64,000 nucleotides of DNA, from the IMG/VR virus record IMGVR_UViG_3300028829_002484, positions 1 to 64,000 of that record, one strand, 5' to 3'. Within the stretch, counting starts at the first letter, position 1. Each line of letters starts with the position of its first letter. The notes below the pieces were generated by a model, which was not told where the DNA came from, did no database searches, and was given only the letters and a program-made list of their open reading frames with translations. This DNA comes from a virus. Shown here piece after piece: positions 26,200 through 57,738 of this stretch. The translations under genes were made by a program, and so were the position numbers.

Positions 26200-26376
26200 A
26201 TGAAAAAGAAATATTCTTTTACTATAGAAGAATCACTAATGGAATGGCTTAGAGTCTATGCTAAAGGAGAAAGTACTAGTATGAGTGCTATTTTGAATCA
26301 GTATATACTAAGTCTAAAGCGTGGTGAAACTAAACCAAAAAATATAATGTATTCGTCTAGTCGAAATGCACGTTAG
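26200..26376 (+). CDS. Small ribbon-helix-helix (CopG/Arc-like) protein, likely DNA-binding regulator
   Basis: ATG 26200 follows an AAGGAG site by nine bases and encodes 58 residues, M-K-K-K-Y-S-F-T-I-E-E-S-L... The layout is that of ribbon-helix-helix repressors: one short basic beta-strand (KKKYSFTIE), a first helix (ESLMEWLRVYAKGE), the turn S-T-S-M-S, then a second helix (SAILNQYILSLKR). A short basic tail ends the protein. It is the only convincing plus-strand gene here and its last 20 bases overlap the end of the gp47/46 gene, which runs toward it. It could repress the fibre promoter it shares a gap with, or its own. Family and fold are inferred from pattern; the target is unknown. Confidence 0.75.
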   Translation: MKKKYSFTIEESLMEWLRVYAKGESTSMSAILNQYILSLKRGETKPKNIMYSSSRNAR

Positions 26377-29300
26377 AAAAGGTATTTTCTTTTTTTATTT
26401 CTAATAAGGTATCTACAGCATCTCTCATAGAATCTATATGAGATACAATCATTGTAAATTGAAATTGCGACTTTAGATACTGAAATAGATTATAAACAGA
26501 ATTTAGATTATCCGAATCCATAGTTCCCCAACCTTCATCGATTGCTAAGAAGTTAGGTGCTGGTAGGTTAGATACATTTATCAATCCCACACGCATAGCT
26601 AAAGATGATATAAATCGTTCCATACCGCTAGATAGTTCTAAAGGCCATACATTATCATCATCATATACTATATAGCAATTTATATTTTTACCATCCATTT
26701 CTAATATCATAGAAAAGTCTACAATTTGAGATAGGATATCATTTACAGCACCCTCAATTGTTGGAAGTGCTTTTGATATCAACTCATATGGAATACCATC
26801 TCTTTTTACAGCATCCATATAATATTGATAAGCAGCATACTTATCTTCTAATTCCTCTACCTTTTTGATATTAGATAATATATTTTTACGATTAGTTTCT
26901 AATACCTTTATCTCACCATTTACAGATTGTAATTTTTTATCCAACTCTTCTATAGTATGTTCTAACTCTTCCGATTCCAATTCTATAGCTTCTATTTCTT
27001 TTTGTAAACCAATATTATATTGTATATCTTTTTCTTGTTCGTGATATAAGTTTATTTTATCTTCTGTAATTGCTAATTGGCTAATTAGATTTTTCTTTCT
27101 TTCAATAGTCAACTTTTCGTCACTATCTACTTTACTGATATTAGAAGTTAGTAAACTAAATTGCTGTATACACTCATCCATTTGCTGTTTATGTGATGTT
27201 ATATGAGAAAGACCATTTATTATAGTTTCTAATTTATCTGATTCTTTGATAAATTTATCAGCTAATTTTTTATCTTGATTCAATTTCTTTTCAGTTTCCA
27301 TAGCATCCAACGTAAATGGATTACTCATACAATAAGAACAATCAGGATCATATTCTAAATTACCTAATTTATTTATTTTGTCAAGTTTGTTATGTACTTC
27401 TATTTTTAGTTTATCTATTTCAATTTGATTGTTACCCTTTTCTAAAGTATACTGTTCCAATTGGGCAAACTTTTTATCAATCTCATTTTCTTTATAGATG
27501 CTTATCTTTTCGTTTAGTTCTGTCTCTTCTACCTTGTATTGTTCTGATAGAGTTTTCAACTTCCCAACTTTATCATTAGCGTTATCTAACTCAGATGATA
27601 ATTTAGCCTTTTCTTCTTCTAACTCAGAAATATTTAAAGCTGATGTGTCTACTTTCTTTAGTTTCTTTGTCAATGATATTATTGACTTATCTACTTCTTT
27701 TTTATCAATAATGTTTTCATTTTTTTCTTTAGATAAAGATCTTGAATTAGCTCTAAAATCAACTAAAGATTCTTTTATATCTGCTAATTCTCTATCATAG
27801 TTATTATTCTTAAAAGATTTTAGTAGAGAACTCACATCAGATATTTCGTCAGCAGCTAAATTATAAAGTTGGTCAAATACACCAATACCCATAAATTGTG
27901 CAAGCAAGTCTTTTCTTTCTTTTTGTGTCTTGTCAATAAATACAGTTGAGTTTGTTTGTAGAGAAAGTGCTGTCATTATAAAGTCATCATAAGTTCCAAT
28001 AACCTTACGAATGTTTACATCAGTAGTTCGTCTTTGGTCTCCGTTCATAGAAAGTTTATCACCAGCATCATCAGTTGTCCAAAAGTCTACATCAACTTTT
28101 ACGTGACCACTTCTTAACTTTTTAGCTTTTCTTTCAATATAATATTCACAACCATCAACTTCAATTGTAGCTTTACAATAGAAAGTACTCTTTTTACTAT
28201 TCAAAACATTGAGAGCTTTATAAGCTCTAGATGATGTGTCAAATAAACAAAACGAAAGAGCATCTAATAAAGAAGATTTACCACTAGCATTTGGAGCAAA
28301 TATACCTACGATACCATTTAGTTTGGTGAAGTCAACTACATTATCTTCTCCGTATGAAAACATATTTGAAAATTCAAACTTTTTTACTTCCCAAGTCACA
28401 CCTCTCTGAACATTGTCTGCTGGAAGTATCGTGTTTAGTTCTTTATTTATTTTTTTGATATCAAGTAAAGTATTATCATCTACATAATGATTTGTTTTCA
28501 AATACTCTTCTATCAATCCATACTGATAGTCAGCATCTCTCACATTACCTACTGCTATATGTTGTCCTCTGACTTTGTCTTGTGATGTTAGAGAATCTGT
28601 TTTTGTAATAGATACTTCCTTTACACCATAAGTACTATGAATCAAAGTCATAGCTTTCTTTAGCTGTGATGGTGTGGTGTTAGATACCCTAACTCTCAAT
28701 CGAGCCTTCTTAGGTATATCGTGACAATCAGGCACCTTACCATCTTCAATATCAATTGTATAATAGCCGTAGTCATTCGGTATTTCTATGTACTCAGATG
28801 TTCTCTTTGCTACATCCCATAATAAATAACCATGCGAAAGTCCTTCTCCGTGGTTCTGTTGAACCAAACTACCACAATAGGATATAGTTTCTTTTTTATC
28901 TAGGTGCTGTCTTTTGTGGATATCTCCAAGCAGCCCCAAATCATAACCTTTGAACTTAGATATTTTCACATCAGATGGTAAATGAAAACCCAAGTCTGTT
29001 TCTGACTTATCCACTGTTCCGTGAAAGAGAACTATTTTTGTTTCACCTTCAACATCTTTAGCCTCAATATAGTCATCTTCCTTTTCCCATACATCCCATA
29101 CGACAAATTTTACATCAGCACATTTGTAGATTCCACTACGTTTGAGGTAATGTAAATTGGGATGGCGTAAATTATTTACGATTGGAGAAAGGACATCCAT
29201 TCTAGACATATTATTTAAATTACAATCGTGATTACCAGCAATCAATATTGTAGGGCAGATGTCTGCGAGATTTTTAAATAATCTAGATAACTGGTCGACT

Positions 29301-29512
29301 AATTCAGGTGACATTTCGGTTTTTGAATGAGCTATATCACCACCGATATAGACTACGGCATTATCTTTATTTTTTCTTACTTCTTCGTATGTTCTTTCAA
29401 ATACTTGTTCATACTCTTTGTGTCGCTTTAGATTACGAATCTGTATATCTGAAATATGGTGGATGTGTTTTAGTTTACGAAAAGGAACTTTTACAACAGT
29501 TTCTTTTTTCAA
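26357..29512 (-). CDS. 47-46: Fused gp47-gp46 (Mre11/SbcD-Rad50/SbcC) recombination nuclease
   Basis: This 1051-residue protein combines both subunits of the recombination exonuclease that T4 encodes as separate genes 47 and 46. Residues 1-350 are the Mre11-type metallophosphoesterase with H-I-S-D-I-Q (usual DxH is D-I-Q here), G-G-D-I-A-H, A-G-N-H-D, F-H-G and G-D-I-H. Residues about 375-1051 are Rad50-like. They have Walker A A-P-N-A-S-G-K-S-S near 404, long coiled coils, a zinc-hook C-S-Y-C near 724, and the signature L-S-S-G-M-E-R with Walker B F-L-A-I-D-E-G-W-G near 990. It processes DNA ends for recombination-dependent replication. The fusion fixes 1:1 stoichiometry. The stop overlaps a convergent plus-strand gene by 20 bases. 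Confidence 0.95.
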   Translation of the reverse strand: MKKETVVKVPFRKLKHIHHISDIQIRNLKRHKEYEQVFERTYEEVRKNKDNAVVYIGGDIAHSKTEMSPELVDQLSRLFKNLADICPTILIAGNHDCNLNNMSRMDVLSPIVNNLRHPNLHYLKRSGIYKCADVKFVVWDVWEKEDDYIEAKDVEGETKIVLFHGTVDKSETDLGFHLPSDVKISKFKGYDLGLLGDIHKRQHLDKKETISYCGSLVQQNHGEGLSHGYLLWDVAKRTSEYIEIPNDYGYYTIDIEDGKVPDCHDIPKKARLRVRVSNTTPSQLKKAMTLIHSTYGVKEVSITKTDSLTSQDKVRGQHIAVGNVRDADYQYGLIEEYLKTNHYVDDNTLLDIKKINKELNTILPADNVQRGVTWEVKKFEFSNMFSYGEDNVVDFTKLNGIVGIFAPNASGKSSLLDALSFCLFDTSSRAYKALNVLNSKKSTFYCKATIEVDGCEYYIERKAKKLRSGHVKVDVDFWTTDDAGDKLSMNGDQRRTTDVNIRKVIGTYDDFIMTALSLQTNSTVFIDKTQKERKDLLAQFMGIGVFDQLYNLAADEISDVSSLLKSFKNNNYDRELADIKESLVDFRANSRSLSKEKNENIIDKKEVDKSIISLTKKLKKVDTSALNISELEEEKAKLSSELDNANDKVGKLKTLSEQYKVEETELNEKISIYKENEIDKKFAQLEQYTLEKGNNQIEIDKLKIEVHNKLDKINKLGNLEYDPDCSYCMSNPFTLDAMETEKKLNQDKKLADKFIKESDKLETIINGLSHITSHKQQMDECIQQFSLLTSNISKVDSDEKLTIERKKNLISQLAITEDKINLYHEQEKDIQYNIGLQKEIEAIELESEELEHTIEELDKKLQSVNGEIKVLETNRKNILSNIKKVEELEDKYAAYQYYMDAVKRDGIPYELISKALPTIEGAVNDILSQIVDFSMILEMDGKNINCYIVYDDDNVWPLELSSGMERFISSLAMRVGLINVSNLPAPNFLAIDEGWGTMDSDNLNSVYNLFQYLKSQFQFTMIVSHIDSMRDAVDTLLEIKKENTFSNVHFD

Positions 29513-48329: not shown

Positions 48330-49091
48330 TTAGTAAGTAGCTTGTATATCCAATGGATTATCTTTTTCTCTTACTAAAGAGCCTGTATATGAAATATCAA
48401 CTGTACCATAGTTATCAAACTCATGATATAACCTATCATTGAACTTTTTCATAACATTGATAATACGAGTAATGTGCTGTGTATTAGAGCCTGTCATTTC
48501 ACGAATAAGAATATAAAGAGCCTTCTTATTGAAGTTCTCAATATTTTCTTTTATACGAAAAATATGTAATACAGAATCAGCTACCCTAATGTCTTTTTGT
48601 CGTTTGAAAACATTAGTAAGGTTGGTATCCCAAAACCTATGTAACTCATCTATAAATAAAGAAGCACTTTCACTAGCAGCCTCAGCAGACCTTTCACTTT
48701 GTGTATTTCTCTTATAATCTAATACATCCATTTGTGAATGAATCTTACCCATCTTATAGTTTTTATTATTATTTAGGATAAGGTAATTTTTAGCAACAAT
48801 GCTAAAATAAGAGAATGCCCTACCTTTACCCTCTTTGAATTTATGCATGTTCATTACTAAGAAAGAAACGACTTCATGCTTTACTTCTTCAGACGATACA
48901 TCAAAGTAGTAGAACTTAAATGTATGAATAATGTTCTCAACTAACTTTTCAAAAGACTTTCTGATATGCTCATTGTATATCGTATTTCTCAATCTAGGTT
49001 TGTCTGGTGCATTATTGTATCTGATAATTGCTTTTTCAGTATCCATTGTGAAGTAATATCTACTACTTCCTTTTTTTGCTTTTCTACCCAC
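48330..49091 (-). CDS. 55: Late sigma factor, gp55-like
   Basis: This 253-residue protein resembles the T4 late sigma factor that directs host RNA polymerase to late promoters with gp33 and the sliding clamp. A reduced sigma-70 region 2 is visible: F-E-K-L-V-E-N-I-I-H-T-F near 48-60, then V-S-F-L-V-M-N-M-H-K-F-K and G-R-A-F-S-Y-F-S-I-V-A-K-N-Y-L (about 95-112). This is followed by a charged C-terminal tail. It is longer than T4 gp55 (185). It overlaps the upstream small membrane gene by eight bases and is followed by a strong terminator. Its likely targets are the TATTTATA boxes, which read as the reverse complement of the T4 motif. Confidence 0.88.
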   Translation of the reverse strand: MGRKAKKGSSRYYFTMDTEKAIIRYNNAPDKPRLRNTIYNEHIRKSFEKLVENIIHTFKFYYFDVSSEEVKHEVVSFLVMNMHKFKEGKGRAFSYFSIVAKNYLILNNNKNYKMGKIHSQMDVLDYKRNTQSERSAEAASESASLFIDELHRFWDTNLTNVFKRQKDIRVADSVLHIFRIKENIENFNKKALYILIREMTGSNTQHITRIINVMKKFNDRLYHEFDNYGTVDISYTGSLVREKDNPLDIQATY

Positions 49092-49350
49092 TTACAGGCT
49101 CCTTTTCTATTTCTAGTTCATTAACTGCTTTTTCTATTTCTTTGAATATAATTCCTACCTCATCATCTTCAGCAAAGTAATCTTTATAGTCAAGTTGTTT
49201 TATGGTTTTGTTTACATTCAACATTCTCGTACTATATTCATCTATCCAATCTTCCATCATTTCCATCTTTTTCATAGTGTTCCATAATCCATAACAAGAA
49301 GCTACACATAAAAGTGCCAATAATACAAGGATTATTTCCAGAATCATCAT
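49084..49350 (-). CDS. Small single-pass membrane protein beside gp55
   Basis: This 88-residue protein has one N-terminal membrane helix (M-I-L-E-I-I-L-V-L-L-A-L-L-C-V-A-S-C-Y-G-L, residues 2-22) and a cytoplasmic or periplasmic acidic helical tail. I recognise similar short N-anchored proteins next to gp55 in marine T4-like phages, with no assigned function. It overlaps gp55 by eight bases and the HD-domain gene by one. A C near residue 16 could be lipidated but the lipobox is not convincing. Confidence 0.7.
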   Translation of the reverse strand: MMILEIILVLLALLCVASCYGLWNTMKKMEMMEDWIDEYSTRMLNVNKTIKQLDYKDYFAEDDEVGIIFKEIEKAVNELEIEKEPVSG

Positions 49351-50117
49351 TATTTTTCTCCAAATAGTTCTTCAAATAAATCAGCTGATTTAGTTTTCAA
49401 TCTATCACTATCATCAGTTTTTGTTTCTACTGCTTTTTTCATATTAGTAGCAACCTTTACATTTGATTCTTCGTCTAATCTATTCCATTCGTCACCCTCA
49501 ATATGAGTAGCCATCATATCAGCCTGATGAAGTATGTAAGCTATATTAGACTTTAAAGACCAATCAGGATTATAATTCATATAATATGTCTTATTAGCTT
49601 CTTCATACATTCCATCCGTAAGTCTCAATCCAATATATTCCCATTCCGACATTGGTATTCCGAAGTGCTGTAAAATAAATAATGCTCTATCAGTAACAGA
49701 CATATACTGTAGTTTCGGATTGTGTTTGAATATAGAACCTTGATTCTTTCTATGCCATTCCGAATCTTGTGGTATATAGTAATCCTCTTCTAAGTCACCA
49801 ACCTTACCCAAGTCATGATGCATAGCAGCGAAGATAAGTTCTTCGTCTGTAAAGTTTATTGTAGCACCATCTTCAACCCATAACTTTTTTATCTTCAAAG
49901 CGCAATTTGTAACATGCAATACATGCTCTACATATCCACCCACCATAGCATTATGGTAATGTGCTTTTCCACTAGCAGGCGCTACTGACATTCTATCTTC
50001 GAAATACTTATACATTCCTAAGAGTTTCTCTTTACGTTCTCCTTCAAATGTATCTTCGATAAGTTTCATTAGGCTTTCCCAATTTTCTACTATCTGTTTT
50101 TCTGTTAGCTGTTTCAT
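49350..50117 (-). CDS. HD-domain phosphohydrolase
   Basis: This 255-residue protein has the HD metal-site series: H-Y-H-N-A-M-V-G-G-Y-V-E-H-V near 53-66, A-A-M-H-H-D-L-G-K near 97-105 and an Asp in H-Q-A-D-M-M-A near 195-201. HD enzymes of this type dephosphorylate nucleotides or cleave RNA and cyclic nucleotides. In a phage a dNMP phosphatase or an anti-signalling enzyme is plausible. The substrate cannot be told. It overlaps its neighbours by four and one bases, in the operon that also makes gp55. Confidence 0.82.
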   Translation of the reverse strand: MKQLTEKQIVENWESLMKLIEDTFEGERKEKLLGMYKYFEDRMSVAPASGKAHYHNAMVGGYVEHVLHVTNCALKIKKLWVEDGATINFTDEELIFAAMHHDLGKVGDLEEDYYIPQDSEWHRKNQGSIFKHNPKLQYMSVTDRALFILQHFGIPMSEWEYIGLRLTDGMYEEANKTYYMNYNPDWSLKSNIAYILHQADMMATHIEGDEWNRLDEESNVKVATNMKKAVETKTDDSDRLKTKSADLFEELFGEK

Positions 50118-51475
50118 TTTCTTACCTCATATCCATATTTAGTTAATATTATTGTAGGTTCAGTTCTAAGTCTATTTCTGTAGATATTGAAAGGTATTCC
50201 TCTACCCCATCCAATATATTCTAACAGCTGCTTTTTTGTTACTGAGCCAATTTTGTGGATATAATCCACAACTTTTTTATAGCCATCTGTTTCCTTCACC
50301 ATCTTTAGACTATCTTCTGCATTTACAAAATGTTCATTATATTGCTTTACAATCTCTTCCCAAGAGTTTTGCTTTCCCAATGTCTCTGATTTCTCAGAAT
50401 ATAAATTTCTATAATCTTCGTCATCTAATATATTATTCATTTCTTTTATGAACTCTTCATCTTTTTTGAAGTAGATACCAGCATCCTCAGCATATTGTGA
50501 GTAGTAATCAGCATCATAAAAGATATAAGGTACACCAACAGCCATACCATCGGAAGCAGAGTTAGCCCATCCTGTATGATGTGATTGTCCACAAGCACCT
50601 ACCCAACACTTAGATAGTTCTGTAAAGTATCCTTGTCTATCAAATTTATCATTATAGATATATTCTCTATCTATTGAATCAGCTAGCGGCACCCATACTG
50701 TAAAATCTTTTCTTTGTTCCCATAACTTATCCATCTGTTGTAAGAACCAAGGATAGCTTTTGTAACTATTAGCCCTATGATTCCAAACAATTACTTTAGA
50801 CTCTGAGTTTGGTTTTTTTCTTGGGCCTTCTACATTATCCCAACCACGAGGTAAAGGTTTTATCTTATCTTTTAGTACCTCTACATCTTTATCAGGTAAA
50901 CAACTTGGTGCGTGTTCTATAATAGTATCTTTTACTGCCTGTGAATTTACACCAACACTATTCATAGACATCAAGCCAGCATAATGCTGTCTAAGTAAAC
51001 TTGACTCATAACCAGTCGTCTTTGGTATTTCTATATAAGCATCATAACCAAATATAATAGGTCTACAATTAGTCATATTGTTGAAATGATTTTCTAATTG
51101 TAGCGCATGTTCAGGTAAATAACAATATACAAAATCCCAATCTTTAGTTTTATAGTCGGTAATCTTTTTCAGTTGATAAGTATCGAAATGTTGTCTCATC
51201 TCATTTGGATAAGTTGGTTGTTTGTAAAGAACTTGTTCAGTATTCTCATATTGAAAGCCAGGCATTATTTCTGGAGTAAGCACTGTAAAGTGTATATCCT
51301 CTCTCAGCGCTGTCAAATACTTTAGTATGTTAGACATTATAATATAATAACTATCCTTAGTAAAGTCCTTCTGAAAGGTTATATTAGGATATACCAAACA
51401 CCTATATTTATATTCTCTACTTTCGTCTGATTCTTCAAAAAATTTTCTCATCATGCAGTCTTTTTTCTTTGCCAT
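50114..51475 (-). CDS. Glycosyltransferase-like protein (GT-B type) with possible winged-helix tail
   Basis: This 453-residue protein resembles GT-B glycosyltransferases. The C-terminal nucleotide-sugar half has V-I-V-W-N-H-R-A-N-S-Y-K-S-Y-P-W near 225-240, then V-W-V-P-L-A and finally S-A-S-D-G-M-A-V-G-V-P-Y-I-F-Y-D. That is the acidic-sugar-phosphate loop expected in such enzymes. The last 60 residues (V-D-Y-I-H-K-I-G-S-V-T-K-K-Q-L-L-E-Y-I-G) look like a winged helix, which would suit a DNA-directed glycosyltransferase. It overlaps the HNH-helicase gene by 25 bases. DNA base glucosylation as in T4 is a fair hypothesis, but no base-modifying hydroxymethylase is visible here. Confidence 0.7.
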   Translation of the reverse strand: MAKKKDCMMRKFFEESDESREYKYRCLVYPNITFQKDFTKDSYYIIMSNILKYLTALREDIHFTVLTPEIMPGFQYENTEQVLYKQPTYPNEMRQHFDTYQLKKITDYKTKDWDFVYCYLPEHALQLENHFNNMTNCRPIIFGYDAYIEIPKTTGYESSLLRQHYAGLMSMNSVGVNSQAVKDTIIEHAPSCLPDKDVEVLKDKIKPLPRGWDNVEGPRKKPNSESKVIVWNHRANSYKSYPWFLQQMDKLWEQRKDFTVWVPLADSIDREYIYNDKFDRQGYFTELSKCWVGACGQSHHTGWANSASDGMAVGVPYIFYDADYYSQYAEDAGIYFKKDEEFIKEMNNILDDEDYRNLYSEKSETLGKQNSWEEIVKQYNEHFVNAEDSLKMVKETDGYKKVVDYIHKIGSVTKKQLLEYIGWGRGIPFNIYRNRLRTEPTIILTKYGYEVRK

Positions 51476-53343
51476 TGAAATTCATAACCTAATATATCTA
51501 TAGCACTTACAGCATAACCATTTACTGGATGTGTAAACTCTTCGATAGTCTGTTTCCATTGTGGTGTATCTGGTACCTCAATATCAAAAGTGTTTAGTTG
51601 AGAAAAAATTTGATAGCTTATTTCTCTTGATAGAGAATTTATTTCCTCTAAAGATAAACCACCCCAATTCTTACGAACCCATCTACCTAATAATTGTAAT
51701 GGATTTCTAACAATCCAAATACCTAACTCTTTGTCTCTTGGTGTTGGATTTCTAAAAATCAATCCATCTGTTAGTGTAGGTACATTTATACCTTTATCAC
51801 CTTTATTCACAACAACAAGTAATCTAGCAGAACTATTTGGATCATTTATTTCACTCAACCATCCAAGACCTGTATTCTTTTGTTCAACTCTACCTTTTGA
51901 ATTATACTCTACCCATCCATCTGCAGTAGTTTCAATGAATGTCCAATCACTTGGAATACCAGCTTTTACTAAAAGTTTTTTTACTCTATACAAACATGCT
52001 TTATGTTCTTTATCACTTCCAACATCAACCTTTATCATACCAGTAGTTTTAGTTATCAGTTTATTTAGTATTGGAAAGTCCTTTGAGTTTGATTCTACCA
52101 TCTTATCCATAATCAGACTTCTACTTTCTACACGAGACATTAGTCTCCTCAAAGACTTCATCATATAATTATCATCACAATACTTTTTCAAATCTAATGT
52201 TTGATAGATATTACCTATCCAAGCACTATTTGCTATACAATCTTTTGGAGAAACCCAACCATTTATTATTTGATACTTACTTGTTCCAACTTCTTCTTCT
52301 ATTTGTTCTGATGTTGGTGTTGCTGAAAACCCAAATACCCAAGGAGTAACTTCCGTAAACTCAGACATAACATTGTACATTCTGGCTTTATACTTTTCGT
52401 TCTCAGAACCACCCATAACCTTTTTCAATAGTTTCTTATCCGATACAGAACCATAGTGTATTTCATCTCTCAGTAAAGCAAACCTTTGCCCTAAAGACTT
52501 CAAGTATTTATAATCTTCAGTTGGTTCATATGTATCTTTTTCTAAGAGCACTTTACCTATAGTGGCATCGGTAGAAATAAATATAGTTGTATAACCATCT
52601 CTAATTTTTTTCTTTGCTTCTCTCCAAGGTCTTGCATTAAGACCACCAACTTTTATTATCTTTATCTTTCTAAGATTCATACCCTCAAATCGTTCATCCC
52701 CATACCACTCATCCAAATAATCATTGAACTCATCCTTAGGTATGTTGTCACAATTTGGAGCAAAGAACCATATTACATCAACATCCTTTTTAGTAATCAG
52801 TTCAGGAATAAGATGCATGAATGCTGTGTAAGTTTTACCAGCACCCATCGGTGCTTGTAAGATATTTATCAAACCCAACTGAGCTGCTTCAAGAGAATTA
52901 GCTATAGGTTTATAGAATAGTTCATCGTATGGTATAGGTGGAAAGTACCAAGGCCCAATTTCATAGTCTGCAGCTTTTATAGAATTTATAGCTGCTACAG
53001 CTTCATTTACTTCACTTTTTCCACGACCCATATTTACAAATCTTAGAACGATATGAACATTATCACGATGGTATCCATAGTTATTAGATATCCTATCGAT
53101 AGATGGTGCTAATGGACTGTTAGGTATGTACAAAGCATCTAAGTCTAAATCAGCTCCTGATAAAGCACACTTTCCATCTTGTTCGTTGAATATATCCTCA
53201 ATTATCTGAGGTGTGAGTGAAACTTCTCTAGCCTCAGTTCTACCCTTACCTTCTACTCTTACACCCAAACCCTTTTCTTCAGGTGGTTTAGCAGATGATA
53301 GAACATTGTTGAAAAGTTTATTGAATGGTTTTCTGTTATTCAT
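51451..53343 (-). CDS. HNH nuclease - SF2 helicase fusion
   Basis: This 630-residue protein joins two domains. Residues about 40-120 are an HNH variant: C-A-L-S-G at 59-63, S-I-D-R-I near 81-85, G-Y-H-R-D-N near 90-95 and a following V-N-M-G-R-G-K. Residues about 150-600 are a superfamily 2 helicase: Q-A-P-M-G-A-G-K-T (163-171), D-E-I-H (293-296), F-S-A-T-P-T near 339-344, and Q-L-L-G-R-W-V-R near 545-552 as motif VI. It could be a restriction-like nuclease-translocase or a UvsW-type recombination helicase with an added nuclease. An early-type promoter lies 25-56 bases upstream. No ribosome site is seen, as is common in Bacteroidota. Confidence 0.83.
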   Translation of the reverse strand: MNNRKPFNKLFNNVLSSAKPPEEKGLGVRVEGKGRTEAREVSLTPQIIEDIFNEQDGKCALSGADLDLDALYIPNSPLAPSIDRISNNYGYHRDNVHIVLRFVNMGRGKSEVNEAVAAINSIKAADYEIGPWYFPPIPYDELFYKPIANSLEAAQLGLINILQAPMGAGKTYTAFMHLIPELITKKDVDVIWFFAPNCDNIPKDEFNDYLDEWYGDERFEGMNLRKIKIIKVGGLNARPWREAKKKIRDGYTTIFISTDATIGKVLLEKDTYEPTEDYKYLKSLGQRFALLRDEIHYGSVSDKKLLKKVMGGSENEKYKARMYNVMSEFTEVTPWVFGFSATPTSEQIEEEVGTSKYQIINGWVSPKDCIANSAWIGNIYQTLDLKKYCDDNYMMKSLRRLMSRVESRSLIMDKMVESNSKDFPILNKLITKTTGMIKVDVGSDKEHKACLYRVKKLLVKAGIPSDWTFIETTADGWVEYNSKGRVEQKNTGLGWLSEINDPNSSARLLVVVNKGDKGINVPTLTDGLIFRNPTPRDKELGIWIVRNPLQLLGRWVRKNWGGLSLEEINSLSREISYQIFSQLNTFDIEVPDTPQWKQTIEEFTHPVNGYAVSAIDILGYEFQWQRKKTA

Positions 53344-53368
53344 TTTTTATTTTCCATTTTATTATATC

Positions 53369-53399
53369 TAAAGCTACAAATAATTATGCTAAAAGTCAA
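53369..53399 (-). promoter_or_regulatory. Early-type promoter TTGACT-N17-TAGCTTTA before the HNH-helicase operon
   Basis: TTG at 53397-53399 and TAGCTTTA at 53369-53376 (minus strand), 20 bases apart, matching three other copies in the window. It fits the Bacteroidota TTG / TAnnTTTG pattern. It drives the operon that ends with gp55. Its upstream part overlaps the last four bases of the methyltransferase gene. Confidence 0.7.
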
Positions 53400-54187
53400 G
53401 TACTTTTTCCTAAAATATCAATTAGTTTATTACTTGTAAACTTACCAATACCAGTCAACTCATCAATTCTCTTCAGAGACTTATCATAATATTCTTTATC
53501 TAACTCGCACCCTAAGAAATCTCTTTGAGTATTAGCACAAGCTATAGTAGTACTTCCACTTCCATTGAATATATCTAATACTACATCATGAGGATTTGTA
53601 TGAGCTTTTATAATTCTTTCCAATAACTCAACTGGCTTTTGAGTTGGATGCCATCCAGCATATTCTTTTGATGTTGTATGATTATTTTTAGGCCAAACAT
53701 CAGTTGGTATCTTACCAAGTGGATTTAGTTCTGTTCCTTTACGAACACTTTTTTTCATAATATAAGGAATTCTAATATCGTCTCTATTGAACATAAACTC
53801 TTTACCTTTAGAATACATAAGTAAGTCCTCATGCTTTCTAGCAAAGTTTTTCTTCGTTCTACCACCCCAATCATAAGACCATATTATCCAACTTTGGTAA
53901 ACCATATCTTCAAAAGAGTTTAGAATATCTAATTTATATTTCAAAAATGTATCGGTTTTAGTAGTACCCCAAACATACATACACCCACTAGGTTTCAAGA
54001 CTCTTACACATTCTTCACTCCACTTCATGCACCAGTCTAAATATTCTTCTTCACTGTCCCAAGCAGAATCCCAGCCCTTACCACCATCATAACCTATAAA
54101 GTAAGGTGGGTCTGTTAGAACTAAATCTACTGATTCTGTATCTAACTCTGATAAAAATTCTAAACAATCTTTATTTTCTAATATCAT
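53396..54187 (-). CDS. DNA (N4/N6)-methyltransferase
   Basis: This 263-residue protein has the catalytic motif T-D-P-P-Y at about residues 25-29, preceded by the acidic S-V-D-L-V strand. The SAM site D-I-F-N-G-S-G-S-T-T lies later, near 208-217, followed by F-L-G-C-E-L-D-K. DPPY before the SAM motif places it in the beta class of amino-methyltransferases. A T-Q-K-P motif near 185 is typical. No restriction partner overlaps it, but the DUF4338 gene overlaps its start by four bases. It may protect phage DNA or mark it for a function. The target sequence cannot be inferred. Confidence 0.9.
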   Translation of the reverse strand: MILENKDCLEFLSELDTESVDLVLTDPPYFIGYDGGKGWDSAWDSEEEYLDWCMKWSEECVRVLKPSGCMYVWGTTKTDTFLKYKLDILNSFEDMVYQSWIIWSYDWGGRTKKNFARKHEDLLMYSKGKEFMFNRDDIRIPYIMKKSVRKGTELNPLGKIPTDVWPKNNHTTSKEYAGWHPTQKPVELLERIIKAHTNPHDVVLDIFNGSGSTTIACANTQRDFLGCELDKEYYDKSLKRIDELTGIGKFTSNKLIDILGKST

Positions 54188-55377
54188 CTACCTACTTCTC
54201 CTAAATACTTTTTCTTTGTTTCTTCCCATTCAGTTCCTACGATATCACCATAGAAAAGTTTTTCTGGCTTTAGTCTACCTTCATCAAATAACTTACTATA
54301 TCTCTTGATAGCCTTTGGTTTCCACCACTTCATAATATAATCAGAATCTTCGACATACTTTTTCTTCATCTTCAAATCTTTTTCTTCTATCTCACCACGC
54401 AAAAACTCTTTACCATTTTCATAGATATCAGCAAAGTAAATACCACGTTTGAATCCGTGTTGATATTCAGATGCTTTGATTCCAACTGCTTTGAAAATCA
54501 AATTGATTGTCTTTTGTTTTACTCCAGTTGGAGGACCAGCAACGCCCTCTTTTTGTGTAGTAGCCGCTAAGTACTCTTCTTCTTTATTTTCCTTCAACCA
54601 CTGGTGCCATATATCATAAGTCTCATCGTCAGGCTTTAGCGCAATCCTACCTTTAGAAGAACCCATAGTTCTCCAAAGTGGTATAGAGTTATACATAGAA
54701 TGTATTCCGTATAGCGATGTAGTTGATAGTCCAACAAGTGTCTGCCCGTATAGTTTCTTCCAAGCGTCTCTTACAACCGATGAAGTTACTAAAGCGGCTA
54801 CTAACTTACCCCCCAAAAAATTAAAACCTAATGGTTGAGCACAACAAATAGTAGTACCGATGGAAGTATATTTCAATTTACCATCTTTGAACTTATTATC
54901 TTTTGTCCAACCAATAAAATTATCTCTAGCTCCCAATGATGTTACATCAGAGCCTAAACATATAATACCTAAAATCTTTTTAGTTACTTTATCTTTTACA
55001 TAGAACTTTACATTTCTGCCAGGATTAGCAGTAAATTCCATAGTATGAATCAACCTACGAACCAATGTCCACTCTTCATTATGTTTAGTGTTACCTTGTT
55101 CTGTCATCTCAACATAAGGTTCTAAGGCTTCTATCTCTTTGATAGTTTGTTCTTTATTATTTATATCTTTTGGTGTCCAAATAGATTTCTCTATCTTAGA
55201 AAAGTGTGGAGCTTTCTGAGTCATAGAATAGACATCAGCATTGAACTCTAACCATTTTTTATAAAGCGTTTGTTCTTGAACAGACATAGACTTTAGATAG
55301 TCTAAATTATCGATAAACTTCTTACGTTCAGCTTCGAAGTCAAACTTGGGTTCGTCAAAAAAGTCGGTGAAACTCAT
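54184..55377 (-). CDS. DUF4338 / DruA-like protein
   Basis: In this 397-residue protein the central region has G-I-I-C-L-G-S-D-V-T-S-L-G-A-R-D-N-F-I-G-W-T near 140-162. It is followed by a Cys-containing region, N-F-L-G-G-K-L-V-A-A-L and a later Y-G-Q-T-L-V-G-L-S-T. This resembles the DUF4338 family, of which DruA of the Druantia anti-phage system is the known member; its chemistry is not established. The gene overlaps the methyltransferase by four bases, so they form a pair. A ribosome site (AGGAAAA) and a TATTTATA box lie before ATG 55377. Assignment is from pattern and should be checked by profile search. Confidence 0.65.
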   Translation of the reverse strand: MSFTDFFDEPKFDFEAERKKFIDNLDYLKSMSVQEQTLYKKWLEFNADVYSMTQKAPHFSKIEKSIWTPKDINNKEQTIKEIEALEPYVEMTEQGNTKHNEEWTLVRRLIHTMEFTANPGRNVKFYVKDKVTKKILGIICLGSDVTSLGARDNFIGWTKDNKFKDGKLKYTSIGTTICCAQPLGFNFLGGKLVAALVTSSVVRDAWKKLYGQTLVGLSTTSLYGIHSMYNSIPLWRTMGSSKGRIALKPDDETYDIWHQWLKENKEEEYLAATTQKEGVAGPPTGVKQKTINLIFKAVGIKASEYQHGFKRGIYFADIYENGKEFLRGEIEEKDLKMKKKYVEDSDYIMKWWKPKAIKRYSKLFDEGRLKPEKLFYGDIVGTEWEETKKKYLGEVGR

Positions 55378-55387
55378 AACATTTTCC

Positions 55388-55395
55388 TATAAATA
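55388..55395 (-). promoter_or_regulatory. TATTTATA box, 10 bases before the DUF4338 gene
   Basis: Exact octamer in the coding direction (context GAATATTTATAGGAAAA), the closest of the eight copies to a start codon. With the AGGAAAA ribosome site overlapping its end, it may be a promoter with a very short leader or a chance match. Lower confidence than other copies. Confidence 0.4.
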
Positions 55396-55439
55396 TTCAA
55401 TTAGTAATTAGTAAATAGCCTTTGATGGCCGAAAGTTTG

Positions 55440-55511
55440 AGCGGGTGGTGGGAGTCGAACCTACATCTCTTCGATGGTATCGAAGTGTGTTTCCTATAAC
55501 ACTTCACCCGC
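55440..55511 (-). tRNA. tRNA-Gly(ACC)
   Basis: A full cloverleaf can be drawn: acceptor GCGGGTG / CACCCGC, D-arm GTGT ... ACAC with GG in the loop, and anticodon stem CTTCG / CGAAG around loop ATACCAT (anticodon ACC). The T-arm GTAGG / CCCAC has one A-C mismatch and loop TTCGACT. Discriminator T fits glycine. No CCA is encoded. Anticodon ACC reads GGT; glycine tRNAs with A at position 34 are rare in bacteria. It lies between the restriction-like gene and the DUF4338 gene. Confidence 0.88.
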
Positions 55512-55553
55512 AATAATATATATCTATATAATACCTGAAATACAATTTTATTT

Positions 55554-56147
55554 TTAGTATTTCTCATTTACATAGACAAACTCTATAATTGGGTTTGAAT
55601 CAACAACCTCAACTGATACAGAGTTACAATTAGTAGTTGGAAGTTTCTTAGCACCTTCAGCAATCAACTTCATAGTCTTTTCTTCTCTCTTATTGTTATT
55701 AGCCATCAAAGTATCACATACATAAGTTGTGTCTACTTTTACAATAGCGACAACATCACCACCATAATGAAGTGAGAAGTAGTGGTTACATTCTCTATAC
55801 CTATTGATACTTTCAGCAGAGTAAGCACCATTATAGACACCAGCTGCTTTCAAAGTAGTTCCACGAACATTGTTACCTAAGAACTTATCTAACTCTTTCT
55901 TATCCAAAGTTACAGACTTATACTCAGCTTTAGAACCATCTGCTTCATGAGCATCAGCACCAAATGTCTCATCATTGTCTCCACCATTAGAAGCACCTTC
56001 GAAAACCTCATGTCCTAAAATAGAACCAACCTGAAGTTCTCTAAATTTATATTTATCAAATGGGTTACTTACTCCCATATTTGAAGCCAATTCATATACC
56101 ATAGAAATATGATAATTGATGTCTGTTTCGATTTGATTCTTATTCAT
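55554..56147 (-). CDS. PD-(D/E)XK restriction-endonuclease-like protein
   Basis: The frame opens at 56165, but ATG 56147 has a GAGGAAAA ribosome site, giving 197 residues (MNKNQIETDINYH...). Near residues 38-78 it has F-R-E-L-Q-V-G-S-I-L-G-H-E-V-F-E-G, then G-A-D-A-H-E-A-D-G and A-E-Y-K-S-V. This D...E-x-K metal pattern is like that of type II restriction enzymes and related phage proteins. A G-x-Y-x-G/Y-S-L-H-Y-G-G segment follows. No membrane segment is present. An early-type promoter lies 25-55 bases upstream. With the methyltransferase two genes downstream it might form a restriction-modification pair, but the gap and a tRNA lie between them. Confidence 0.68.
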   Translation of the reverse strand: MNKNQIETDINYHISMVYELASNMGVSNPFDKYKFRELQVGSILGHEVFEGASNGGDNDETFGADAHEADGSKAEYKSVTLDKKELDKFLGNNVRGTTLKAAGVYNGAYSAESINRYRECNHYFSLHYGGDVVAIVKVDTTYVCDTLMANNNKREEKTMKLIAEGAKKLPTTNCNSVSVEVVDSNPIIEFVYVNEKY

Positions 56148-56171
56148 TTTATTTTCCTCTTTCATTATATA

Positions 56172-56587: not shown

Positions 56588-56660
56588 TGGAGCTGACAGG
56601 GATCGAACCTGCGACTTCTTCCGTGCAAGGGAAGCGCTCTCCCAACTGAGCTACAGCCCC
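56588..56660 (-). tRNA. tRNA-Ala(TGC)
   Basis: Cloverleaf: acceptor GGGGCTG / CAGCTCC (one G-T pair), D-arm TAGCTCAGTTGGGAGAGC, and anticodon stem CTTCC / GGAAG with loop CTTGCAC (anticodon TGC). The T-arm is GCAGG / CCTGT with loop TTCGATC. Discriminator A, no encoded CCA. Its first ten bases overlap the last codons and the TAG stop of the UvdE gene, and the next gene starts six bases after it. Confidence 0.95.
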
Positions 56661-57595
56661 ATATGTAATTCCTTATATTTTTCTACTGCTAGTTCTTTGT
56701 GTTTAGCTTCTACCATAACATCAATCTCATTACCATAAGTATTGATTTTTTGTAAAACATAATCTGAATGAGCTTGAACTCTGATAGTCTCATCTTTCTG
56801 TTCATCTCGTCTACTCTCTGAATAGTGAGTAGCTGGTGTGATACCATCAGGCCAAGTTGATATAGCCAACTCCAAAGCTTGTTGTTCTGATAAATCGCCT
56901 GTACAAAACTGATGGTGGTGGTAATCAAATACGATAGGAATACCAATTACTTTGTAAACACCATCATACAAATCCCTAACTGAATACATACTAGCTTTGT
57001 CATCGTTTTCTACTGTTAGTCTACTCTGTACAGATTTTGGTAACATTTTGAAGTTTTCACAGAATCTCTTCATAGCTGATTCTTTATCTCCATAAGCACC
57101 ACCAATATGAATATTGATTTTGTTGTATGGCGTCTCACTTAGTCCCATCATATCAAATGTAGCAGCATGGTCAGTCAAATCACCAATACAATTTTCAACT
57201 ACATGCGGATGTGGCGATGTAAGTACATTGAAAGGACCTGGATGAGATGTGATACGAATATTATGAGTTTTAGCTTTCACGCCAGCAGAGTGTAAGTATT
57301 GTCTAATCTTTTCAATATCTTTCAAGTCATCCCATTCATACTCAGACTTCCAAGGTGCGAGGCCTGATGTGATACGAAAGAAATTGTACCCATTCAGTAT
57401 ATTCCAATCCATAATCTTATCTAAGTCCATAGCATTGGCTAGTGTAAGTTCACTAGCATAGTCTACACCCTTAGATAGAAATGTTCGTTTTATCATACTC
57501 CTACCAGTAGTTATCGGCTTTACACCTTTAGGTTGACCACCATATTTTTGTGGGTACGACAATTGCATGTTGATACAAGCATATCCTATATTCAT
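56651..57595 (-). CDS. uvdE: UV-damage endonuclease UvdE/UvsE-like
   Basis: ATG 57595 is chosen over 57601 because AGAGG then stands at a good distance and the stop of a 47-residue gene overlaps it as TAATG. The 314-residue TIM-barrel enzyme nicks DNA at UV photoproducts. Family motifs: M-N-I-G-Y-A at the start, F-F-R-I-T-S-G near 73, I-T-S-H-P-G-P-F-N-V-L near 113, V-E-N-D-D-K near 200, V-F-D-Y-H-H-H-Q near 225, H-S-D-Y and V-M-V-E-A-K near the end, which include metal ligands. It runs into tRNA-Ala. It probably repairs phage DNA in sunlit water. Confidence 0.93.
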   Translation of the reverse strand: MNIGYACINMQLSYPQKYGGQPKGVKPITTGRSMIKRTFLSKGVDYASELTLANAMDLDKIMDWNILNGYNFFRITSGLAPWKSEYEWDDLKDIEKIRQYLHSAGVKAKTHNIRITSHPGPFNVLTSPHPHVVENCIGDLTDHAATFDMMGLSETPYNKINIHIGGAYGDKESAMKRFCENFKMLPKSVQSRLTVENDDKASMYSVRDLYDGVYKVIGIPIVFDYHHHQFCTGDLSEQQALELAISTWPDGITPATHYSESRRDEQKDETIRVQAHSDYVLQKINTYGNEIDVMVEAKHKELAVEKYKELHMGL

Positions 57596-57738
57596 TACCA
57601 TTCCTCTCTTCTTCCAAAGTTATTTTTTTCTATTCGCTTTTTTAGATGTCTCTTATACATCATCATAAAGATTACATTTTTAAATAGTGAGATGATGCCA
57701 TCAAACCACCAAAAAATTTTTAGTAAAAAGTACGGCAT
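57595..57738 (-). CDS. Translationally coupled micro-protein (47 residues)
   Basis: A frame with ATG at 57738 overlaps the stop of the HAD gene as TGATG, and its TAA overlaps the uvdE start as TAATG. It encodes MPYFLLKIFWWFDGIISLF..., a hydrophobic, aromatic first half (residues 1-27, possible membrane helix) and a basic second half (KRHLKKRIEKNNFGRREEW). Both junctions are typical of coupled translation, which is why I accept it. No family is known. Confidence 0.6.
   Translation of the reverse strand: MPYFLLKIFWWFDGIISLFKNVIFMMMYKRHLKKRIEKNNFGRREEW

What the first reader, a model, noticed from the sequence alone, without database searches (positions are those of the whole stretch)
49350..56147. 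Modification/defence-like cluster: methyltransferase, DUF4338/DruA-like, PD-(D/E)XK, HNH-helicase, glycosyltransferase, HD hydrolase
Within 7 kb lie a beta-class DNA methyltransferase overlapping a DUF4338 (DruA-like) gene, a restriction-like PD-(D/E)XK gene, an HNH-SF2 helicase fusion, a GT-B enzyme with a possible winged helix and an HD hydrolase. Such a mix is more typical of bacterial defence islands than of a phage replication module. In a phage it could protect its DNA, attack competing phages or degrade host DNA. The DruA-methyltransferase pair is the most distinctive part.
Basis: inference. Interest (0 to 1): 0.75.

Follow-up and report, generated by a model that had tools for sequence, protein, structure and literature searches.

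The report
Swappable restriction-modification islet in marine phage
This T4-like marine phage carries what looks like a complete PvuII-type restriction-modification system at a genome spot where related phages swap different DNA-cutting, DNA-modifying and other conflict genes, which suggests that lytic phages exchange such weapons as ready-made cassettes.

Summary
The DruA-methyltransferase neighbourhood is incidental: this methyltransferase family lies beside DruA in only three relatives. The conserved pair is the methyltransferase plus the small PD-(D/E)XK gene upstream of DruA. In other phages the two genes overlap or lie within about 0.5 kb; they are within 2 kb in 7 of 9 lineages, against about 2% expected. 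The nuclease model matches PvuII endonuclease (Foldseek E 1.6e-6, probability 1.00), and its D-x9-E-x-K motif is invariant. It is most likely a phage-borne type II restriction-modification system, here interrupted by the resident tRNA-Gly and DruA. DruA is a divergent GNAT-fold protein; no Druantia system was found. The region upstream of the HD hydrolase is a cargo hotspot: relatives carry EcoRI plus D12 methyltransferase, a TdeIII-like nuclease plus D12, Mom, GmrSD-like HNH, GHKL or ParB-like proteins, or nothing. Two 92-96% identical backbones (L228, L230) differ exactly between the DruA stop and the glycosyltransferase start. Antiviral hotspots are known from temperate P2/P4 phages; this is a variant in a T4-like marine group. 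No activity is demonstrated.

The parts
55554..56165 (-). PvuII-fold restriction endonuclease candidate (203 aa; likely start at 56147, 197 aa); catalytic motif D71-x9-E81-x-K83
   Evidence: AlphaFold model (pLDDT 81); Foldseek PDB top 11 hits all PvuII, best E 1.6e-6, prob 1.00; motif invariant in 12 homologs
53396..54187 (-). beta-class DNA methyltransferase (DPPY then FNGSGST; probably N6-adenine), the likely cognate modification enzyme
   Evidence: Pfam N6_N4_Mtase 7.7e-57; nearest solved structures MboIIA, RsrI; paired with the PvuII-like gene in 7 of 9 lineages
54184..55377 (-). DruA/DUF4338-family protein, divergent GNAT-like fold; semi-resident gene of the locus
   Evidence: Pfam DruA 1.5e-25; model pLDDT 86; Foldseek hits dominated by GNAT-type acyltransferases; in relatives it is followed by varying cargo
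55439..55511 (-). tRNA-Gly, upstream of DruA; conserved at this place in close relatives
   Evidence: ARAGORN, Rfam, relatives
51451..53343 (-). HNH endonuclease fused to SF2 helicase; cargo, absent from sister locus L003
   Evidence: ResIII 4.6e-7, HNH phrog_3322 1.7e-15; found only in near-identical contigs; absent in L003
50114..51475 (-). GT-B-like glycosyltransferase with conserved C-terminal winged-helix-like tail; semi-resident, fast diverging
   Evidence: sub-threshold Pfam GT hit; mostly 33-46% identical (84% in L003) in relatives whose DruA is 50-94% identical
49350..50117 (-). HD-domain phosphohydrolase; backbone gene that marks the downstream edge of the hotspot
   Evidence: alignment A6; followed by the gene at 48330 in most relatives
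48330..49091 (-). backbone gene downstream of HD, judged to be the T4 gp55-like late sigma factor (no family hit)
   Evidence: no significant Pfam, PHROG or NCBIfam hit; assignment by sequence reading and position (inference)

Best explanation
The stretch is the cargo hotspot of a T4-like marine phage group, lying just upstream of the HD hydrolase and (probably) the late sigma factor gene. In this phage it holds a type II restriction-modification system. The methyltransferase (53396-54187) marks a short sequence in the phage's DNA, probably as N6-methyladenine. The PvuII-fold endonuclease (55554-56165) cuts the same sequence when it is unmarked, in host DNA (supplying nucleotides and shutting down the host) and in superinfecting phages. 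Shown: the genes, the predicted PvuII fold with intact motif, the recurrent nuclease-methyltransferase pairing, and cassette replacement at exact gene borders in relatives. Inferred: enzymatic activity, base type, shared recognition site, benefit to the phage. DruA is a semi-resident GNAT-like protein, possibly an additional DNA or protein modifier. The HNH-helicase is a further cargo gene of unknown target.
For: (a) The PvuII-like gene and this methyltransferase family lie within 2 kb in 7 of 9 lineages, overlapping by 4 bp in L079-L082 and L091, by 32 bp in L178, and 149 bp apart in L168-L171; background about 2% per 4 kb, rough P 4e-11. Prochlorococcus phage P-TIM68 has a distant PvuII-like homolog between two methyltransferases. 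(b) Foldseek: PvuII, E 1.6e-6, prob 1.00, TM 0.70 on the target; D, E, K invariant. (c) Same locus in relatives: EcoRI family plus D12 methyltransferase (L005), TdeIII-like nuclease before and D12 methyltransferase after DruA (L012), nuclease plus methyltransferase (L244), Mom (L019, L045, L207), Mom upstream of DruA (L052), GmrSD_N-HNH (L193, L219). (d) L228 and L230: 92-96% identical backbones, with different cargo exactly between the DruA stop and the GT start.
Against: No activity, base modification or recognition site is known. In the window the two genes are not adjacent: tRNA-Gly and DruA lie between them. The window nuclease is only 39% identical to that of sister locus L003, while the methyltransferases are 90% identical, so matched specificity is not assured. 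PvuII-fold domains also occur in modification-dependent nucleases (Eco15I, NhoI; ranks 12-22). The Pfam PvuII model does not hit the window protein by sequence. Two lineages (L175, L176) show no neighbouring methyltransferase within the DNA held.
Confidence: 0.72

Rival explanations
1. The methyltransferase is an orphan that only protects phage DNA from host restriction, and the PvuII-fold gene is an independent nuclease for degrading host DNA or for recombination.
For: Many members of the methyltransferase family (for example L083-L086, L095-L098, cyanophage S-BM3) have no PvuII-like neighbour. Phage methyltransferases of this superfamily are common (1,753 phage records).
Against: The PvuII-like family is found with this methyltransferase in 7 of 9 lineages, with overlapping reading frames in several, and at the same locus other unrelated nuclease plus methyltransferase pairs occur.
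Confidence: 0.15
2. DruA is itself a Mom-like DNA acyltransferase and, with the winged-helix glycosyltransferase and the HD hydrolase, makes a hypermodified base; the nucleases at the locus are the matching restriction arms.
For: GNAT-like fold; DUF4338 called GNAT in PMC10853773; a distant cyanophage homolog is annotated 'methylcarbamoylase mom'; true Mom genes occur beside DruA; conserved GT C-terminal tail.
Against: Profile-profile comparison with Mom is negative; Mom (8bv8, found) is not among the 50 best fold matches; DruA is missing upstream of HD in 24 of 40 relatives with more than 3 kb of upstream sequence, and GT is missing in several; no CoA site was demonstrated.
Confidence: 0.12
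3. A phage-borne Druantia-like defence system built on DruA.
For: PADLOC and Pfam DruA hits.
Against: No hit to another Druantia protein in the neighbourhood; DruA homologs in isolated T4-like marine phages lie in replication modules without such partners; the helicase has no PADLOC match.
Confidence: 0.04

Closest known systems
PvuII type II restriction-modification family (R.PvuII fold)
   Same: Nuclease fold and D-x9-E-x-K active-site spacing (R.PvuII D58/E68/K70, own knowledge); linked beta-class DNA methyltransferase
   Different: About 20% identity; the methyltransferase has DPPY and resembles N6-adenine enzymes MboIIA and RsrI rather than N4-cytosine M.PvuII; the pair is split by tRNA-Gly and DruA; virus-borne, with no relative found in the prokaryote genome collection
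[quoted passage not shown] 2022, PMC9122126)
   Same: One locus between conserved genes with exchangeable antiviral cargo
   Different: Temperate E. coli phages and satellites there; here a T4-like, presumably lytic, marine group with restriction-modification and Mom genes among the cargo; no activity tested here
DNA-modification and nuclease systems of jumbo phages (PMC7824862), and Chlorella virus restriction-modification systems (own knowledge)
   Same: Virus-borne modification plus nuclease, predicted to attack host or superinfecting DNA
   Different: The jumbo-phage examples are mainly Mom-REase fusions; here separate genes of rotating families at one locus
DruA-like proteins of cyanophages (Phold paper, PMC12774648)
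   Same: DruA-like proteins in T4-like marine phages
   Different: Reported there as single structural hits; here placed in a locus with exchangeable cargo

Membership tests
Type II restriction-modification system (PvuII-like) | PD-(D/E)XK nuclease of PvuII fold | tested here: met
   predicted structure and Foldseek
Type II restriction-modification system (PvuII-like) | Intact catalytic D, E, K | tested here: met
   D71, E81, K83 invariant in 12 homologs
Type II restriction-modification system (PvuII-like) | Cognate DNA methyltransferase genetically linked | tested here: met
   7 of 9 lineages within 2 kb; 1.37 kb apart in the window's lineage. That it is cognate is inferred
Type II restriction-modification system (PvuII-like) | Sequence match to the curated PvuII family | tested here: not met
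   Pfam PF09225 finds nothing in the window record; only distant homolog P-TIM68 gp050 scores E 0.002, below cut-off. Hence 'PvuII-fold', not 'member of Pfam PvuII'
Type II restriction-modification system (PvuII-like) | Nuclease and methyltransferase act on the same site; cutting blocked by methylation | not testable with these tools
   needs biochemistry
Druantia defence system | DruA homolog | tested here: met
Druantia defence system | DruE helicase and the other type I partners | tested here: not met
   no PADLOC hit to other Dru proteins among the 10 proteins of the neighbourhood
Mom DNA-modification family (for DruA) | Sequence profile similarity to Mom | tested here: not met
   hhalign probability below 1%; the cyanophage, HTVC008M and Mosig homologs hit Pfam DruA, not Mom
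Mom DNA-modification family (for DruA) | GNAT-like fold | tested here: met
   Foldseek PDB hits are mostly GNAT-type acyltransferases but weak, best E 0.004
Phage antiviral hotspot | Different cargo between the same conserved flanks | tested here: met
   83 HD clusters with varying cargo; exact replacement in L228 versus L230
Phage antiviral hotspot | Cargo shown to block other phages | not testable with these tools
   needs plaque assays

The most novel reading that the evidence does not exclude
DruA, the glycosyltransferase with a DNA-binding-like tail and the HD hydrolase together make an undescribed bulky DNA modification in T4-like marine phages. The hotspot swaps restriction nucleases and extra modifiers (Mom, methyltransferases) around it, so that each phage attacks DNA lacking its own mark. 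That would be an exchangeable self/non-self DNA coding system used between lytic phages.
Probability: 0.12. Interest if true: 0.88.

Novelty: new variant of a known kind. Interest (0 to 1): 0.6.

Why it matters
Antiviral hotspots and complete restriction-modification systems are known mostly from bacteria, prophages, satellites and Chlorella viruses. Finding that a T4-like, presumably lytic, marine phage group keeps a single locus through which PvuII-fold, EcoRI-type and TdeIII-like nucleases, adenine methyltransferases, Mom and other conflict genes are exchanged would mean that phage-against-phage and phage-against-host restriction is carried by the predator itself. It would make the locus, bounded by DruA or tRNA-Gly and the HD gene, a place to mine for new restriction enzymes and DNA modifications. 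It also identifies a PvuII-fold family seen so far only in viral contigs and phages.

Tried and rejected
DruA-methyltransferase as the functional pair: rejected by synteny. Druantia system: rejected, no partners. DruA as a Mom-family member by sequence: rejected; as a Mom-like DNA modifier: left open. DruA as a core gene: my first impression from DruA-anchored loci was biased; an HD-anchored search showed DruA in only 16 of 40 loci with more than 3 kb upstream. HNH-helicase as UvsW: no useful similarity to Mosig UvsW; as the restriction arm of the methyltransferase: unlikely, since sister locus L003 has the methyltransferase and PvuII-like gene without it. Solved-structure searches by sequence for DruA, GT, HD, the helicase and the PvuII-like alignment gave nothing useful. 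PvuII-like relatives in 84,980 prokaryote genomes: none at this sensitivity. PHROG, NCBIfam and PADLOC gave no function for the PvuII-like gene. A literature search for PvuII-like phage restriction systems returned no paper in the held library.
Full report
What the window is. The window is 64 kb of a 64.7 kb IMG/VR virus record. The large terminase is 55-56% identical to those of Microcystis phage Mel-JY01 and Flavobacterium phage Immuto, and the HD gene is 46% identical to Immuto's. It is a T4-like myovirus of a mostly uncultured, apparently marine group. The host is not known.

Check of the observation. All six genes are intact minus-strand reading frames. Pfam finds DruA (1.5e-25), N6_N4_Mtase (7.7e-57) and ResIII (4.6e-7) above cut-off; HD and glycosyltransferase are sub-threshold. 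PHROG adds an HNH endonuclease at the helicase N-terminus (1.7e-15) and metal-dependent phosphohydrolase for HD. The PD-(D/E)XK gene had no informative family hit. The methyltransferase and DruA frames overlap by 4 bp. Two tRNA genes, Gly and Ala, flank the PD-(D/E)XK gene.

Is DruA-methyltransferase a unit? A DruA scan of viral contigs gave 59 loci. In nearly all of them DruA is followed by HD, often through GT, and then by the gene at 48330. The methyltransferase family is present in only three: L003, L021 (a near-identical strain) and L049. In isolated phages, DruA homologs (Mosig, HTVC008M, S-SCSM2R, S-CAM9) sit in replication modules without a neighbouring methyltransferase. In S-BM3 a 63% identical methyltransferase has no DruA neighbour. 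So the overlap is real but not a conserved pair.

The real pair. A scan with the methyltransferase showed that in unrelated phage contigs (L079-L082, L091) the gene directly upstream is the PD-(D/E)XK gene, with 4-bp overlap. A scan with the PD-(D/E)XK family found more cases: L168-L171 (149 bp apart), L177 (477 bp) and L178 (32-bp overlap). Counting lineages, 7 of 9 have the methyltransferase within 2 kb. In the DruA/HD-anchored loci (1.43 Mb) the same methyltransferase HMM hits 7 times (four contigs, three of them sampled twice), so chance is about 2% per 4-kb neighbourhood and a rough binomial P is 4e-11. That estimate ignores relatedness between phages and is only a guide. Prochlorococcus phage P-TIM68 has a distant homolog between two methyltransferase genes, with a weak Pfam PvuII match (E 0.002, below cut-off).

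What the nuclease is. An alignment of 12 homologs (A5) has invariant D71, E81 and K83. AlphaFold with that alignment gave pLDDT 81 and pTM 0.76. Foldseek against the PDB put PvuII endonuclease first to eleventh (best E 1.6e-6, probability 1.00, TM-score 0.70 normalised by target), then Eco15I and NhoI. The D-x9-E-x-K spacing equals that of R.PvuII (D58, E68, K70; from my own knowledge). The Pfam PvuII model itself does not hit the window, so I call it PvuII-fold, not a member of that Pfam family. The Eco15I and NhoI entries describe methylated target DNA, so a modification-dependent nuclease remains a rival, but the recurrent methyltransferase partner favours classic restriction-modification.

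The methyltransferase. Motif DPPY precedes FNGSGST, the beta-class order; DPPY, the nearest solved structures (MboIIA, RsrI) and the NCBIfam relatives point to N6-adenine. Window, L003 and L079 enzymes are 80-90% identical over their length, including the likely target-recognition region. The nucleases of L003 and L079 are 85% identical, while the window's is 38-39% identical to them. Either it diverged quickly or it was replaced; matched specificity in the window is therefore inferred, not shown.

DruA. The model (pLDDT 86) has as best PDB matches GNAT-type acyltransferases and related folds with modest scores (E 0.004 to 0.1; 8q6u_B probability 0.99). This agrees with PMC10853773, which calls DUF4338 a GNAT domain. 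Comparison with Mom profiles is negative, and Mom's solved structure 8bv8 is not among the 50 best matches. No other Druantia proteins were found nearby. DruA-like proteins in cyanophages were already reported (PMC12774648).

The hotspot. Between DruA and GT or HD, relatives have: an EcoRI-family nuclease with a D12 adenine methyltransferase and a helicase-like gene (L005); D12 methyltransferases (L008, L012); one or two Mom genes (L019, L045, L207, L208); a second DruA (L044, L045, L047); GmrSD_N or GmrSD_N-HNH proteins (L013, L193); HNH proteins (L007, L030); GHKL ATPases (L230); a ParB-like protein by reading (L034); or nothing. Upstream of DruA: the PvuII-like gene (window, L003), a TdeIII-like nuclease (L012, E 3e-4, partial, sub-threshold) and Mom (L052). 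L012 repeats the window's split layout: nuclease, tRNA-Gly, DruA, methyltransferase.

An independent scan anchored on HD gave 80 loci. HD is followed by the 48330-type gene in most of them, while DruA is found upstream in 16 of the 40 with more than 3 kb of upstream sequence. L219 and L231 have GmrSD-HNH genes, L225, L227 and L247 GHKL-type genes, and L244 and L248 a nuclease-like gene overlapping a type II methyltransferase directly upstream of HD. In all, 105 loci form 83 clusters at 98% HD identity. Labels there come from BLAST to Pfam- or PADLOC-typed representatives, and some are approximate.

Cassette exchange. L230 and L228 align at 92-96% nucleotide identity up to the DruA stop codon and again from the GT start, with unrelated cargo between (1,569 bp against 1,997 bp). 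L004 and L014 (about 92% identical over DruA) also carry unrelated cargo at that place, and L028 against L030, L034 and L042 show the same pattern. Window-like L021 and L003 share tRNA-Gly-DruA, methyltransferase and GT, but not the nuclease gene by DNA, and only the window's lineage has the HNH-helicase.

How it most likely works. After infection the phage makes the methyltransferase, marks its own replicating DNA, and uses the PvuII-fold nuclease to cut unmarked host and competitor DNA. Homologous flanks (DruA, GT, HD) and cargo HNH nucleases would allow cargo replacement by recombination during co-infection. The molecular activity, the timing and the benefit are inference.

Comparison with the known. 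Rousset et al. [quoted passage not shown] A jumbo-phage survey describes Mom-nuclease fusions and DNA modification for attack and protection (PMC7824862). T-even phages have hotspots of injected anti-restriction proteins (PMC12373910). The present locus is a new variant of the phage antiviral hotspot: T4-like, marine, with full restriction-modification pairs among the cargo.

Limits. The contigs are metagenomic and some are short. Lineage counts are small and not phylogenetically corrected. The gp55 identity of the 48330 gene rests on reading the sequence and on position. GT and HD functions are sub-threshold assignments. No methylation data exist for these phages.

Noticed in passing
window 26357-29512 (-): One 1051-aa frame reads as a fusion of gp47-like (SbcD) and gp46-like (SbcC/Rad50) recombination nuclease subunits; near full-length homologs at 40-41% in Microcystis phage Mel-JY01 and an uncultured 484-kb phage record. 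They are separate genes in Mosig, HTVC008M and S-CAM9.
   Followed up: partly
L004:6015-6536, L007:6588-6990, L013:2519-2939, L014:6340-6759, L019:3823-4243: Phage-encoded tmRNA genes upstream of DruA in relatives, with tags ending in YAYA or similar; none found in the window.
   Followed up: no
window 55439-55511 (-): tRNA-Gly read with anticodon ACC by ARAGORN, while the syntenic tRNA of relatives has TCC; A at position 34 is unusual for bacterial tRNA-Gly.
   Followed up: no
L091:1073-3659: Tandem of PvuII-like nuclease, methyltransferase, PDDEXK_11 nuclease and Mom in one small contig: a compact double modification-restriction cassette outside the DruA locus.
   Followed up: partly
L044, L045, L047 between DruA and HD: A second, about 35% identical DruA paralog in the cargo slot; in L045 it accompanies two Mom genes.
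   Followed up: partly
window 56651-57601 (-): UvdE-type UV endonuclease (Pfam 1e-54), present upstream of DruA in several relatives.
   Followed up: no
BFVD matches of the DruA model: DruA-like folds in giant viruses (Faunusvirus 469 aa, Yasminevirus 1260 aa, Dasosvirus 1157 aa), some inside long proteins.
   Followed up: no
L021:11903-13180: The near-identical strain has a shorter GT frame (425 against 453 aa; 94% by tblastn), suggesting recent variation within GT.
   Followed up: no
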